From Paludibacter sp. 47-17 (GTDB taxonomy: Bacteria > Bacteroidota > Bacteroidia > Bacteroidales > Paludibacteraceae), in contig MKVT01000029.1 in the NCBI GenBank assembly GCA_001898935.1, positions 1 to 64,000 of the forward strand: 64,000 bases of DNA, read 5' to 3'. Positions 60,989 through 64,000 of this stretch are shown piece by piece. A program made the translations under genes and the position numbers. Below the pieces are notes generated by a model, which worked only from the letters and a program-made list of their open reading frames with translations, did no database searches and had not been told where the DNA came from. Numbering within the stretch: position 1 is the first letter of the stretch; every line of letters begins with the position of its first letter.

Positions 60989-61225
60989 AATGGGACAGCA
61001 AAAACTTGAAAATGAAGTAATAAAATAGAAATGGCAATTACGGACAAGACACGAAAAACACTTTGGGCGCGTTCTGGCAACATCGGCAACCCCCAACATT
61101 GATAATTTTCCTGTAAAAAGCGCAGCACGTCACACCGTGGTTGGCAAATGGAGAGTTGCATTATTTGGTGAAGATAAATGGCACTATGAAACAATTAAAA
61201 GCAGGCGTAGATTAGGTGCAAAACT

Positions 61226-61860
61226 ATATGATTTTGATTATATCGTTTACAAAAAATCTGGTTTTTCTTCAAAAGTCCAACATAATGAAACTTGATTCAA
61301 AACGTGGGTACAGGTTAAATCATGGGATAATGGAATGACAATTGGTTGGAAAGACATGATTTTTAAAGTTAAAATGCCAGGTCTGGAGAAATGGCAGAAA
61401 CCAACAAATCTTAGTACTGTTAAAAGCGCAAAATACACTGAATATGTTACAAGTGTTGATTTCTCTAAAACACCTTTAGCTGTTGGTAATGATGCGCTAA
61501 CAATTGTGATTCCATTCAGTGGTGAAAAAGGTTTCTCATATGCTGACCTGCAAAAAATGATATAAAAATTTGCAGCTAAGAAATTAGTATCTACTCTTAA
61601 TAGTGCTCGCACAAAAGCAAATGGCTTTATGGTAGATGTTCCATCACAAGAAACCAGATACATTTATAGTGCATCAACAGAAAAATGGGAAAAGGTCCTG
61701 AATTAAACCAGGTTTTTCCGAGTGATGGTGTTAGTGTTAAAATTTTTGCTGGAAATGCTGGAAATTTTTTGTATTACATGCAAAAGCAATGACGGCATCA
61801 ATGAACATGAAAAATTTCAAATTTATTTCAGGAATGACTAATGCCTACACCGACAATGAC
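61226..61860 (+). pseudogene. Degenerate gene of unknown family
   Basis: One frame is interrupted by stops at about 61291 and 61563: KSGFSSKVQHNET, then FKTWVQVKSWDNGMTIGWKD, MPGLEKWQKPTNLSTVKSAK, and after the second stop KFAAKKLVSTLNSARTKANG and YIYSASTEKWEKVLN to 61707. A further frame near 61800-61900 (FKFISGMTNAYTDNDNEGYI) looks like a continuation. The residue pattern is clearly protein-like, but I do not recognise it. The gene is dead. Confidence 0.5.
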
Positions 61861-62232
61861 AATGAGGGATATATTGTGTATGCCGAGAAGCTTTTGTAAA
61901 ATCCGCACTTCGGATTTATGTCCATGTGTAATCGAAAGTCACAACTTGATTTATGTTTTTCACTAATTCAAACTTCTACCAGTTTATCGGGGGCTTACTC
62001 TTTCCCCAGGCAATCGGTTCCGTTCAACATGTTTTATTCTCAATTGTCGTTAATAGATGAAATGGTAGTAAATGTGTTTGAAATTTACGATTTTTTCAAT
62101 AACTTTGGCATTTGAAATTATAAGCTAGGATGTTATATGTCATATTAAGAAAGGACAAAGAGCCTTTTGCGCCATTCATTACAACTATACCGAGAGTCAA
62201 AAAATAAAAACACTAAAAAAGAACCTGAAATT
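61707..62232. other. Spacer before the peptide cassette, with a cassette-linked repeat
   Basis: It holds the tail of the degenerate gene, the 18-base sequence agtttatcgggggcttac (61981-61998, also at 82-99) and, from about 62008, the start of the duplicated cassette unit, which matches 63562 onward. No complete gene is present. Confidence 0.5.
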
Positions 62233-62580
62233 ATGACGTTTACCAGAACAATTAAATTATTACAACTCCTACATGAACTTATATCAGAGGAGAGAACAGA
62301 CACGCCGGAAAGACTAGCCAAGAAACTTAGTATTAGCCGAGCAAGTTTGTATTTGCTACTTGACGATTTGAAGAAAAATAATCTGCCAATTACTTATTCG
62401 AGAAAAAAGAAAAGTTTCATTTATACTAAAAAAGTGAACATGAAACTTGACTTTGAACTTGAAATTATAGAAAGTGAACATGATTTAAGTAAGATTGATG
62501 GTGGTTTTGTGGCTTACAAGCTTCCGTCTAAACATATGAACGGAAGGAGTTTTATATTTGCGCCATATTTGCAAATATAA
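62233..62580 (+). CDS. Small HTH regulator of the peptide cassette
   Basis: 115 residues from ATG 62233 (MTFTRTIKLLQLLHELISEE); the frame from 62167 lacks a reason for the extra 22 residues. A DeoR/HTH_11-like domain is seen at about 20-55 (TPERLAKKLSISRASLYLLL), followed by a beta-rich tail ending GRSFIFAPYLQI. It resembles small HTH proteins of Bacteroidota that neighbour short peptides. Its 3' end contains the inverted repeat and promoter-like box that precede the peptide gene, so it probably controls that gene. Function is inferred from context. Confidence 0.68.
   Translation: MTFTRTIKLLQLLHELISEERTDTPERLAKKLSISRASLYLLLDDLKKNNLPITYSRKKKSFIYTKKVNMKLDFELEIIESEHDLSKIDGGFVAYKLPSKHMNGRSFIFAPYLQI
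62521..62579 (+). promoter_or_regulatory. Putative peptide promoter/operator with two inverted repeats
   Basis: Hairpin CTTCCGT/ACGGAAG (62521-62527, 62540-62546) and inverted repeat TATATTTGC/GCAAATATA (62553-62561, 62571-62579). TATATTTG is a Bacteroidetes -7 box. The whole segment is kept unchanged in copy 2 at 63864-63922 although the gene around it is broken there, which argues that it is regulatory. Confidence 0.6.
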
Positions 62581-62641
62581 GAGTCAGTTCACAGGCTTTA
62601 AGTTGTGGCAAAAATAGATTTACATTTTACTAAAAAAGAAA

Positions 62642-62848
62642 ATGAAAAACTTTGATGTTAACAAATATGGCGTTCAGGAAATGAATGGAGAAGAGAAAAA
62701 GGAAACTAATGGAGGAAATGGTATTTGGAAGTGGGTTGTGGACTATGTTGTTGGAAAGTTAGTTGATAATATTCCAGAAGCTATAGAAGCTAGCAACCAA
62801 GTCAAGCGAGAAGGTGGAAAACTTTGCACTGATATGCCATTCAAATAA
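62642..62848 (+). CDS. Double-glycine leader peptide (bacteriocin/RiPP-like precursor)
   Basis: 68 residues. The N-terminal MKNFDVNKYGVQEMNGEEKK, then ETNGG, is a double-glycine leader with Gly-Gly at 25-26 (after ET-N). Cleavage there would leave about 42 residues that start NGIWKWVVDYVVGKLVDNIP, an amphipathic, partly hydrophobic helix, and end with a single Cys (KLCTDMPFK). This is the pattern of class II bacteriocin or signal peptides exported by C39-peptidase transporters. No such transporter is in the window. A terminator follows, then the CPBP gene. Confidence 0.62.
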   Translation: MKNFDVNKYGVQEMNGEEKKETNGGNGIWKWVVDYVVGKLVDNIPEAIEASNQVKREGGKLCTDMPFK

Positions 62849-62868
62849 TTCCCAATTTTTTTGTAACG

Positions 62869-62906
62869 AAAGAGATGCTTGTATACTTATCTTGTGTCTC
62901 TTTTTT
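62869..62906 (+). terminator. Terminator between the peptide and CPBP genes
   Basis: aaagaga (62869-62875) and tctcttt (62897-62903) with a T-run; loop of 21 bases. It should limit read-through from the peptide into the CPBP gene. Confidence 0.55.
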
Positions 62907-62916
62907 ATGATTATTT

Positions 62917-63393
62917 ATGCTGAGTGATTTTTTTCGAAAACAGAATGTAGTAATTTTTATAGCCATTTTCTATTGTTTGATTCTTTTTATTAATGCTCTG
63001 TTTTTTGCTTTTACAGAGATTTTCAATATTGGTGACTTTGTGTTTTCAGAACCTCCTTCATTGACTAATCGAGGAATTCTTGGAATGATAGTTAAGGGAT
63101 TAATAATCGCACCTTTATTGGAAACTTTGATATATCAACAATTTATTTATTATATTTTATCAAAATTATCATTTTTGAAAAATCAGACGTTATTAATCTG
63201 TATTGTGTCAGGGATAGTTTTTGGTTTAGCTCATACTTATAGTCTTATTTATATGATCCAAACAAGCCTTATTGGTTTTGTTTTTATGTATGCCTTTCTA
63301 ATTCATATTAAGAATTTGAATAAAAGTTTTTGGCTGGTTACATTTATCCATTTTATGGTAAACTTGTCTGTGTTTTTGGAACAATTACTTTAG
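62917..63393 (+). CDS. CPBP-family intramembrane protein, possible immunity factor
   Basis: 158 residues with four to five membrane helices. The CPBP motifs are present in order: APLLETLIYQQF (Glu of motif 1), FGLAHTY (His of motif 2) and HFMVNLS (His/Asn of motif 3). CPBP proteins are Rce1-like metalloproteases; in lactic bacteria they act as bacteriocin immunity or self-processing proteins. Lying directly after the double-glycine peptide gene, an immunity or maturation role is plausible. Confidence 0.7.
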   Translation: MLSDFFRKQNVVIFIAIFYCLILFINALFFAFTEIFNIGDFVFSEPPSLTNRGILGMIVKGLIIAPLLETLIYQQFIYYILSKLSFLKNQTLLICIVSGIVFGLAHTYSLIYMIQTSLIGFVFMYAFLIHIKNLNKSFWLVTFIHFMVNLSVFLEQLL

Positions 63394-63984
63394 TTTATGT
63401 GTTTGGTAATCTCCTGGACAGTTTTGTTTTCTTGAAGTAGCTCTAAAACTACTTTCGTTTTAAACCTGCACCGTAAGTTTTCCTTTTCTTTATGACAACA
63501 AAATCAGTACTATGTTTTAATGCGACTTGTTGTCTAAGATTAGGAAGGAATTATCCCCGAGGCAGGCGGTTCTGTTCACTATGTTTTATCTTCAATTTTC
63601 ATTAATAGATTAAACAGTTGTAAATGTTTGAATTGTACGATCTTTTCAATAACTTTGGTATTCGGAGATTTGGAATTAAAATCTAAGATGTTATTTACTA
63701 TATTAAAAAAGGATAAGGAGCTTTTGGCGCCATTCATGAAAATTATACCGAGAATCACAAAATAAAAATACTAACAAAGAACTTGAAACTTGACGTTGAA
63801 TTTTAAGTTGCTGAAAGTAAATATAATTTAGGTAAAATTAATGATAGTTTTGTAGCTTGCATGCTTCCGTCTAAACATATGAACGGAAGGAGTTTTATAT
63901 TTGCGCCATATTTGCAAATATAAGAGTCAGCTCACAGGCTTTAAGTTGTGGCAAAAATAGATTTACATTTTACTAAAAAAGAAA
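63394..63984. other. Spacer and degenerate second copy of the cassette upstream region
   Basis: The first part (to about 63561) shows no gene. From 63562 it is copy 2 of the direct repeat, with the regulator gene reduced to fragments. Confidence 0.6.
63735..63923 (+). pseudogene. HTH regulator remnant in copy 2, HTH domain deleted
   Basis: The sequence jumps from the region before the regulator ATG (aaagaacttgaaa) straight to its later part (gacgttgaattttaagttgc), deleting the HTH codons, and carries stops. The C-terminal coding bases with the hairpin and promoter box are retained. The breakpoint lies at similar short sequences (gaac.tgaaa.t..gac), which suggests deletion by microhomology. 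Confidence 0.6.
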
Positions 63985-64000
63985 ATGAAAAACTTTGATG
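63985..64000 (+). CDS. Second double-glycine peptide gene, start only
   Basis: atgaaaaactttgatg equals the start of the copy 1 peptide (MKNFD). The rest lies outside the window, so it cannot be told whether this is the same or a diverged peptide. Confidence 0.55.

What the first reader, a model, noticed from the sequence alone, without database searches (positions are those of the whole stretch)
62008..64000. Tandemly duplicated regulator/double-glycine peptide/CPBP cassette
A small HTH gene, a peptide with a Gly-Gly leader and a CPBP membrane protein are followed by a second copy of the same upstream region and a second peptide start. Tandem arrays of such units suggest a peptide family under diversification, as in bacteriocin or pheromone loci, and this is not a well described arrangement in Bacteroidota.
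Basis: partly seen in the sequence, partly recalled or inferred. Interest (0 to 1): 0.75.

Follow-up and report, generated by a model that had tools for sequence, protein, structure and literature searches.

The report
Bacteriocin cassette array with double-glycine-tailed regulator
A Paludibacter genome carries a modular peptide-toxin-type locus whose small DNA-binding regulator ends in what looks like the same cut-here signal as the peptides themselves, hinting that the exporter may also process its own regulator.

Summary
The contig (68,787 bases) runs past 64000 with a second and third double-glycine peptide, a second CPBP gene, an HlyD adaptor and a C39-peptidase ABC exporter. It is an accessory class-II-bacteriocin-type locus of Paludibacter, built from modules: conserved operator, promoter and leader, a variable core and, in some, a CPBP gene (candidate immunity). 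Related arrays carry relics of the 5' end of hlyD. The "second HTH" is a dead remnant, but its operator-to-ATG DNA is 99% identical to the first copy.

The unexpected part is the HTH regulator: after the winged helix it carries a leader-like ..DLSKIDGG tail. A GG in the tail occurs in 59 of 136 relatives collected across Bacteroidota; 48 of these 59 score as leader-like (above the 95th percentile of background GG sites), and leader-like tails associate with C39 exporters. On plasmid pAT7 a tailed HTH directly precedes a TolC-HlyD-C39 operon. I propose that C39 cleaves or engages the regulator, coupling toxin expression to export. That step is inferred: nothing was tested at the bench, and structure prediction never ran.

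The parts
61892..62117 (+). Sequence matching DNA in and just downstream of an IS91-like transposase gene elsewhere in the genome (C14); upstream edge of unit 1
   Evidence: blastn 88% and 77% to L016 5638-5736 and 6051-6180; the IS91 label is recalled from the look of the protein, not from a family search
62003..62240 (+). Unit 1 upstream repeat (copy 2 at 63554-63797)
   Evidence: 80% over 248 nt; 82.8% by global alignment
62233..62580 (+). HTH regulator, 115 aa: winged helix plus C-terminal tail with double glycine
   Evidence: HTH_11 E 2.7e-5, 24.4 bits against cut-off 25; only intact copy found in the genome at E up to 1
62470..62505 (+). Leader-like tail segment of the HTH protein, residues 80-91 (ESEHDLSKIDGG), Gly-Gly codons 62500-62505
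   Evidence: Leader matrix score 4.7, above the 99th percentile (-1.07) of 1419 background GG windows
62522..62545 (+). Operator-like inverted repeat TTCCGT-N12-ACGGAA inside the HTH 3' end
   Evidence: 3 places in the 4.18 Mb genome, 2 of them in this locus; reversed control pattern 1 place; conserved in front of Paludibacter cassettes
62553..62560 (+). -7 box TATATTTG (TAnnTTTG) of the presumed peptide promoter
   Evidence: TAnnTTTG in 13 of 13 aligned cassette starts; the Bacteroidota consensus itself is recalled
62565..62598 (+). 5' UTR with two short stem-loops in the consensus
   Evidence: RNAalifold on 12 sequences: 11 pairs, 1 with changes on both sides; weak evidence for RNA structure
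62642..62848 (+). Peptide 1, 68 aa; leader codons 62642-62716; Lys at -7, where 46 of 53 leaders have Met/Leu/Ile/Val
   Evidence: no Pfam or NCBIfam match at E up to 1
62917..63393 (+). CPBP1, 158 aa membrane protein, candidate immunity; motif E-T-x3-Q instead of E-E-x3-R
   Evidence: PF02517 40.7 bits against cut-off 22.4; motif
63409..63554 (.). Repeat shared with the starts of contigs C33 and C13 and with C1; separates the two units
   Evidence: 79-82% identity
63744..63920 (+). Remnant of a second HTH gene: winged-helix part missing, internal TAA, GG codons lost
   Evidence: 61-63% to HTH residues 55-115
63865..63888 (+). Second, identical operator-like inverted repeat
   Evidence: operator-to-ATG DNA 99.2% identical between units
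63985..64000 (+). Start of peptide 2 (65 aa). Continues on the contig: peptide 2 to 64182, peptide 3 64207-64419, CPBP2 64514-64996, HlyD 65013-66164, C39-ABC exporter 66161-68332
   Evidence: L006 = contig 63900-68787; exporter TIGR01193 522.4 bits against cut-off 523.85; Peptidase_C39 119.8 bits

Best explanation
This is an accessory double-glycine (class II bacteriocin-type) peptide locus. One HTH regulator binds an inverted repeat that sits in its own 3' end and again in front of unit 2, and switches on each cassette (inferred). The peptides are cut after Gly-Gly and exported by the C39-ABC/HlyD pair (inferred from family membership and leaders). The CPBP proteins protect the producer (inferred from position and relatives). 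New cores with their immunity genes enter by recombination between conserved flanks: operator-promoter-leader on the left and the 5' end of hlyD on the right (supported by relics and identity patterns). The regulator itself ends in a C39-type recognition sequence and Gly-Gly. The exporter's peptidase therefore probably engages or cleaves it, so that regulator activity reads out exporter capacity or load, much as some secretion systems regulate genes by secreting a regulator (inferred). Shown by computation: anatomy, operator conservation, leader-like tail, its enrichment near C39. Not shown: cleavage, DNA binding, killing, immunity.
For: Exporter, adaptor, further peptides and second CPBP downstream. 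The leader profile finds GG peptides in 31 of 57 loci screened; 9 have adjacent peptide pairs and 9 a CPBP within 1.5 kb, 6 both (Fisher p 0.0068; the own pair counts peptide 3, added by hand because the profile missed it). Two of the four CPBP genes found in the genome lie in this locus. Peptide 2 core matches a core in L068 (score 78, 0 of 300 shuffles), and among 25 loci compared CPBP2's best match outside itself is the CPBP beside that core. N-terminal HlyD fragments (from residues 1-75) occur in 5 of 14 loci, in three of them beside an intact hlyD; 4 other HlyD segments and 6 C39 segments of the same query give none. Operator/UTR identity within a locus is 87-100% in 4 of 4 two-cassette Paludibacter loci, against a maximum of 85% in 74 between-locus pairs, while cores are no more alike within than between. 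HTH tails: GG in 58 of 85 tails of at least 20 aa against a shuffled mean of 13.6, maximum 23; 48 of 59 score above the 95th and 38 above the 99th percentile of background. Leader-like GG against C39 within 5 kb: 32/7 versus 23/40, p 6.4e-6; census loci L179-L278 only, 18/6 versus 18/34, p 0.0013. The pre-GG segment is constrained as protein (pN/pS 0.30). pAT7: tailed HTH 5 bp before TolC-HlyD-C39, with four GG peptides on the same plasmid.
Against: No experiment. The C39 association counts rows related by descent, so the p-values are optimistic; 34 of 136 rows were dropped for incomplete flanks. Seven leader-like tails have no C39 within 5 kb in complete flanks. Of 23 HTHs near C39 without a leader-like GG, 5 have a lower-scoring GG, 4 have Ala-Gly, 3 are broken or cut by a contig end and 11 simply lack it. 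The search profile was built from HTHs of peptide loci, 16 of 17 with GG. Position -7 of the tails is Leu/Met/Phe in only 27 of 59. The post-GG tail is not much conserved as protein (pN/pS 0.72) and its synonymous rate is depressed, so its apparent motif is the operator DNA. Own peptides 2 and 3 miss the NCBIfam cut-offs and peptide 1 has no match. Peptide 1 has Lys at -7. CPBP1 and CPBP2 lack the EExxxR motif. With one region definition the inverted repeat plus -7 box is found in 9 of 48 leader-like-tailed and 11 of 77 tail-less HTHs, so it is not special to tailed ones. An outer-membrane partner was not searched for.
Confidence: 0.6

Rival explanations
1. Pheromone reading: the HTH domain is the leader of a precursor, and the tail after Gly-Gly (11-39 residues in most leader-like cases) is exported as a signal, the HTH stub staying behind as regulator.
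For: Tail positions resemble C39 substrates: Leu/Ile/Met/Val at -12 in 44 of 59, Glu/Asp/Gln at -8 in 50, Ile/Leu/Val/Phe at -4 in 44. LahT150 removes long Nif11 and nitrile-hydratase-type leaders and cuts MBP-tagged peptides (PMC6363468, passages). Short tails of varied sequence resemble peptide cores.
Against: The tail after GG evolves with pN/pS 0.72 and shares its DNA with the operator; one leader-like tail (L243) ends at GG. No receptor gene was looked for.
Confidence: 0.2
2. The Gly-Gly tail is not a processing site. It is part of the regulator's own fold, or a relic of fusion with a peptide leader, and the locus is an ordinary regulated bacteriocin cluster.
For: No structure could be predicted; C39 recognition was not tested; 7 leader-like-tailed HTHs with complete flanks lack C39 nearby; -7 is hydrophobic in only about half; arrays recombine at this place.
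Against: More of the leader code than GG is present; tailed HTHs reach beyond the own class; the pre-GG segment is under purifying selection; untailed relatives of the same family exist.
Confidence: 0.25
3. Simple tandem duplication followed by drift, now decaying: unit 1 holds the regulator, unit 2 the working peptides, with no module exchange.
For: HTH remnant in unit 2; mobile-element-like repeats at the unit edges; degenerate -7 position in peptide 1.
Against: Operator to ATG 99.2% identical but core DNA 60% and CPBP proteins 28% identical; in L068 three hlyD relics are 91-94% identical to the intact N-terminus while the cores show at most weak similarity.
Confidence: 0.2

Closest known systems
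Class IIb (two-peptide) bacteriocins, lactobin A/cerein 7B and lactococcin G types
   Same: Double-glycine leaders, adjacent peptide genes, CPBP (Abi) candidate immunity, C39-ABC exporter with accessory protein; 29 of 51 related peptides match TIGR03949 at E up to 0.1
   Different: Bacteroidota host; own peptides below cut-off; tandem cassettes with a shared operator; HTH regulator with GG tail; small CPBPs with ETxxxQ
Bacteroidetocins (Coyne 2019, PMC6671954, passages read)
   Same: Bacteroidales double-glycine peptide with an ABC exporter that has a double-glycine peptidase domain
   Different: Those have 15-16 aa leaders, four cysteines, a thiol oxidoreductase gene and no obvious immunity protein; here leaders of 23-25 aa, at most one cysteine per own peptide, CPBP partners
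Nif11/nitrile-hydratase leader peptides and other C39 substrates with long leaders (PMC6363468, passages)
   Same: A long N-terminal part followed by a double-glycine site
   Different: Here the N-terminal part is a winged-helix DNA-binding domain beside a presumed operator
Secretion-coupled regulators such as FlgM (recalled, not tested here)
   Same: Regulator carries a signal for the export system whose genes it controls (proposed)
   Different: C39 type I exporter rather than a flagellar or type III system; proposal untested

Membership tests
Class IIb bacteriocin (TIGR03949) | Precursor scores above the curated cut-off | tested here: not met
   Peptide 2: 13.3 bits against 21.5; peptide 3 no family at E up to 0.1; peptide 1 none at E up to 1
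Class IIb bacteriocin (TIGR03949) | Two adjacent leader peptides needed together | tested here: inconclusive
   Peptides 2 and 3 are adjacent; joint activity not testable
Double-glycine peptide exported by C39-ABC | Leader with hydrophobic -12, acidic -8, hydrophobic -7, Gly-Gly | tested here: met
   Peptides 2 and 3 fit; peptide 1 has Lys at -7
Double-glycine peptide exported by C39-ABC | Cognate C39-ABC exporter in the locus | tested here: met
   Peptidase_C39 119.8 bits over cut-off; TIGR01193 522.4 against 523.85, just under its cut-off
CPBP/Abi immunity protein | PF02517 domain | tested here: met
   CPBP1 40.7 bits, cut-off 22.4; CPBP2 over cut-off
CPBP/Abi immunity protein | EExxxR motif (recalled as typical; used as a search word) | tested here: not met
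   ETLIYQ and ETFIFQ; 7 of 7 CPBPs of 172 aa or less in these loci have ETxxxQ, 8 of 9 larger ones EExxxR
CPBP/Abi immunity protein | Protects the producer | not testable with these tools
   Needs knock-out and overlay assay
Bacteroidetocin | 15-16 aa leader, four cysteines, thiol oxidoreductase gene | tested here: not met
   Own leaders are 23-25 aa with at most one cysteine per peptide; no thiol oxidoreductase noted among the downstream frames, no family search made for one
HTH_11 regulator | PF08279 domain above cut-off | tested here: inconclusive
   Own protein 24.4 bits against 25; 29 of 44 tailed relatives match at E up to 0.01

The most novel reading that the evidence does not exclude
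A widespread Bacteroidota family of winged-helix regulators carries a C-terminal C39-peptidase recognition sequence and Gly-Gly, making the transcription factor a substrate of the toxin exporter it sits beside. Regulator processing by a type I exporter would couple peptide-toxin expression to export.
Probability: 0.55. Interest if true: 0.85.

Novelty: new variant of a known kind. Interest (0 to 1): 0.62.

Why it matters
If true, a protein exporter's peptidase would act directly on a transcription factor, a direct way for a cell to match toxin production to secretion capacity. It also gives a bait for finding unannotated peptide toxins in Bacteroidota: look beside GG-tailed HTH genes and their inverted repeat. 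The modular arrays, with hlyD relics at module edges, offer a readable record of how toxin and immunity pairs are exchanged.

Tried and rejected
Not favoured: a radical SAM-modified peptide cluster (none noted by eye among the downstream frames; no family search for one). Rejected: the post-GG tail motif (PSxxxDGxN) as a conserved pheromone; it is encoded by the operator repeat, and synonymous change is depressed there. Weak: RNA structure in the 5' UTR (1 of 11 pairs with changes on both sides). The inverted repeat 27-34 nt upstream of a -7 box was found in 14 of 48 leader-like-tailed HTHs measured from GG (shuffled mean 0.3, maximum 2 of 200 shuffles). But with one region definition for both it is 9 of 48 against 11 of 77 without GG, 3 of these 11 being broken tailed genes (L060, L062, L089), and no shuffles were run for the latter: not specific to tailed HTHs. 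No family covering the tail among the 25 listed of 60 NCBIfam and 25 listed of 33 Pfam families; no solved structure below E 0.013, the best rows being mostly antibody chains; no defence-system match at E 0.01 for the HTH or CPBP proteins. Literature: searches for a double-glycine site on a regulator (6, 11 and 15 papers listed, all of those found) and for Paludibacter with bacteriocin (20 of 36 listed) showed nothing that describes it in title or abstract start; the library lacks most subscription papers. Structure prediction of the HTH was asked for 11 times and never ran.

Dropped before counts: duplicate loci L040, L041, L043, L046 (same contigs as L061, L064, L060, L062), which with two identical proteins takes 140 HTH rows to 136; 34 of 136 HTH rows with incomplete flanks and no C39 in the association test. 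Of the 85 non-own HTH rows the stretches fetched cover 81 (not G580:C96, G668:C14, G345:C702, G370:C31); of the 36 non-own rows (not G736, G819, G694, G744, G794, G691, G716, the weakest).
Full report
Check of the observation. The HTH gene, GG peptide, CPBP gene and the repeated upstream region are all there. The repeat is far from chance: 269 nt at 90% and 248 nt at 80%. The window ends inside the second peptide; the contig continues to 68787 and carries peptide 2, peptide 3, CPBP2, an HlyD adaptor and a C39-ABC exporter. The genome has three C39 matches, and only this intact HTH of its kind was found.

Anatomy of the two units. Copy 2 lacks about 215 bp of the HTH gene (roughly its first 68 codons), has a stop and no GG codons, so only copy 1 can make the regulator. 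Identity between units is 83% upstream, 80% in the HTH remnant, 99% from the inverted repeat to the ATG, 84% in the leader and 60% in the core (DNA, global alignment), and 28% between the CPBP proteins. Both units begin with sequence also found beside an IS91-like gene on C14, and a repeat shared with contigs C33, C13 and C1 separates them.

Relatives. HlyD relatives were found in 40 loci, the nearest named Paludibacter sp., which is why I place the genome in that genus. A leader profile found GG peptides in 31 of 57 loci screened, this one included. In the genus, 8 of 48 genomes carry the leader: an accessory trait. Locus L068 (Bacteroidia bacterium MS495-25) has five peptides, two CPBPs and three relics of hlyD's 5' end. 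Across 14 loci, fragments of HlyD residues 1-75 apart from an intact hlyD appear in five: beside an intact hlyD in L060, L062 and L068, and without one in the stretch in L042 and L044. L058 also shows only the N-terminal part and was not counted. Four other HlyD segments and six C39 segments of the same query give none (a second query from L068's own HlyD gave three weak hits for one inner segment, E 0.003-0.008, far from the cassettes). In L068 the relics are 91-94% identical to the intact N-terminus, while the cores show at most weak similarity (two pairs at 1-2 of 300 shuffles). This favours insertion of modules over drift after duplication.

Shared operator. Across 13 Paludibacter cassette starts the right arm ACGGA and a TAnnTTTG -7 box are present in all, and the left arm TCCGTC in 12. 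The exact repeat occurs at three places in this genome, two of them here; the reversed control pattern occurs once. In the four loci with two cassettes, operator/UTR identity within the locus (87-100%) exceeds all 74 between-locus pairs (maximum 85%). I read this as one regulator serving all cassettes of its locus. A similar repeat and -7 box also follow some tail-less HTHs.

Immunity. Nine of 31 loci have a CPBP within 1.5 kb of a peptide; the own genome has four PF02517 matches, two here. Adjacent peptide pairs and CPBPs go together (6 of 9; Fisher p 0.0068; the own pair includes peptide 3, which the profile missed and I added by hand). CPBP2 and peptide 2 have matching counterparts side by side in L068. 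CPBPs of 172 aa or less carry ETxxxQ (7 of 7), larger ones EExxxR (8 of 9). Protection itself is inference.

The regulator's tail. HTHs from peptide loci end in ..ELxKINGG-like sequence plus a short tail; many relatives away from such loci stop after the wing. A search with HTHs of peptide loci found the family in 53 of 393 genomes of the order and 36 of 395 of the phylum. Of 136 non-identical proteins, 59 have GG in the tail, 20-23 residues past the modelled HTH domain in 46. The rule read in passages of PMC6363468 is Leu -12, Glu -8, Leu -7 and a hydrophobic -4. The tails have Leu/Ile/Met/Val at -12 in 44 of 59, Glu/Asp/Gln at -8 in 50, Ile/Leu/Val/Phe at -4 in 44, but Leu/Met/Phe at -7 in only 27. 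A position matrix from 53 peptide leaders, without HTHs, ranks 48 of 59 tails above the 95th percentile and 38 above the 99th percentile of 1419 GG sites in long frames. Leader-like tails have C39 within 5 kb in 32 of 39 usable rows, against 23 of 63 for the rest. In 30 of 32 such rows another leader candidate (GG or GA) lies in the same stretch. On pAT7 of Aureibacter tunicatorum the HTH ends ..KEMSATDMYHINGG plus 17 residues and precedes TolC-HlyD-C39 by 5 bp; four peptides there have leaders such as MKDLNNNELNDINGG. An untailed relative sits beside conjugation genes in Bacteroides uniformis pBUN1.

What the tail is not. In eight pairs of relatives the pre-GG segment has pN/pS 0.30 and the post-GG tail 0.72, with synonymous change 0.32 against 0.68 in the HTH body (p 1.8e-11, sites pooled over pairs). 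The tail after GG is therefore shaped mainly by the DNA it encodes, which in Paludibacter is the operator; the GG segment is kept as protein. This argues for a processing site more than for a conserved pheromone.

Limits. No structure prediction ran. Rows are related by descent, so p-values are optimistic. Seven leader-like-tailed HTHs with complete flanks lack C39, and 11 HTHs near C39 simply lack the tail motif. The profile favours tailed members. Own peptides miss curated cut-offs. Literature coverage is partial; papers cited were seen as passages (PMC6671954; PMC10352776; PMC6363468; PMC10986499). PMC10986499 itself suggests, for the cyanobacterial C39 exporter HetC, that a cleaved substrate's N-terminal part might stay behind and interact with a transcriptional regulator; that is the nearest printed idea I saw.

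Noticed in passing
window 61079-61900: Several short same-strand frames that read like one decayed gene upstream of the locus.
   Followed up: no
L006 4790-4888 (contig 68689-68787): The contig ends in a short repeat that looks like an insertion-sequence end (recalled as IS21-like), so the assembly may hide further cassettes.
   Followed up: no
L012 (C6:110000-127000): A second C39 locus with glycosyltransferase-like and LanC-like proteins and a GGG-containing precursor-like protein; labels are from reading the sequence, not from a family search.
   Followed up: no
L199 5071-7193: Two tailed HTH genes in tandem with nearly identical tails, in another family of the order.
   Followed up: no
L062 4383-4714, L060 5207-5545, L089 6318-6554: HTH genes with a break between the wing and the expected GG tail; they may be decaying.
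   Followed up: partly
L250, L253, L257, L080: HTH tails with Ala-Gly in place of Gly-Gly near C39 exporters.
   Followed up: no
L284/L282 (pAT7, NZ_AP025312.1): A 15.4 kb plasmid carrying a compact system: tailed HTH, TolC, HlyD, C39-ABC and four GG peptides; a possible model.
   Followed up: partly
L285 (Persicobacter sp. JZB09 plasmid, CP012854.1): HTH match just after a C39-like frame, followed by two short GG-leader frames; the HTH tail was not read.
   Followed up: no
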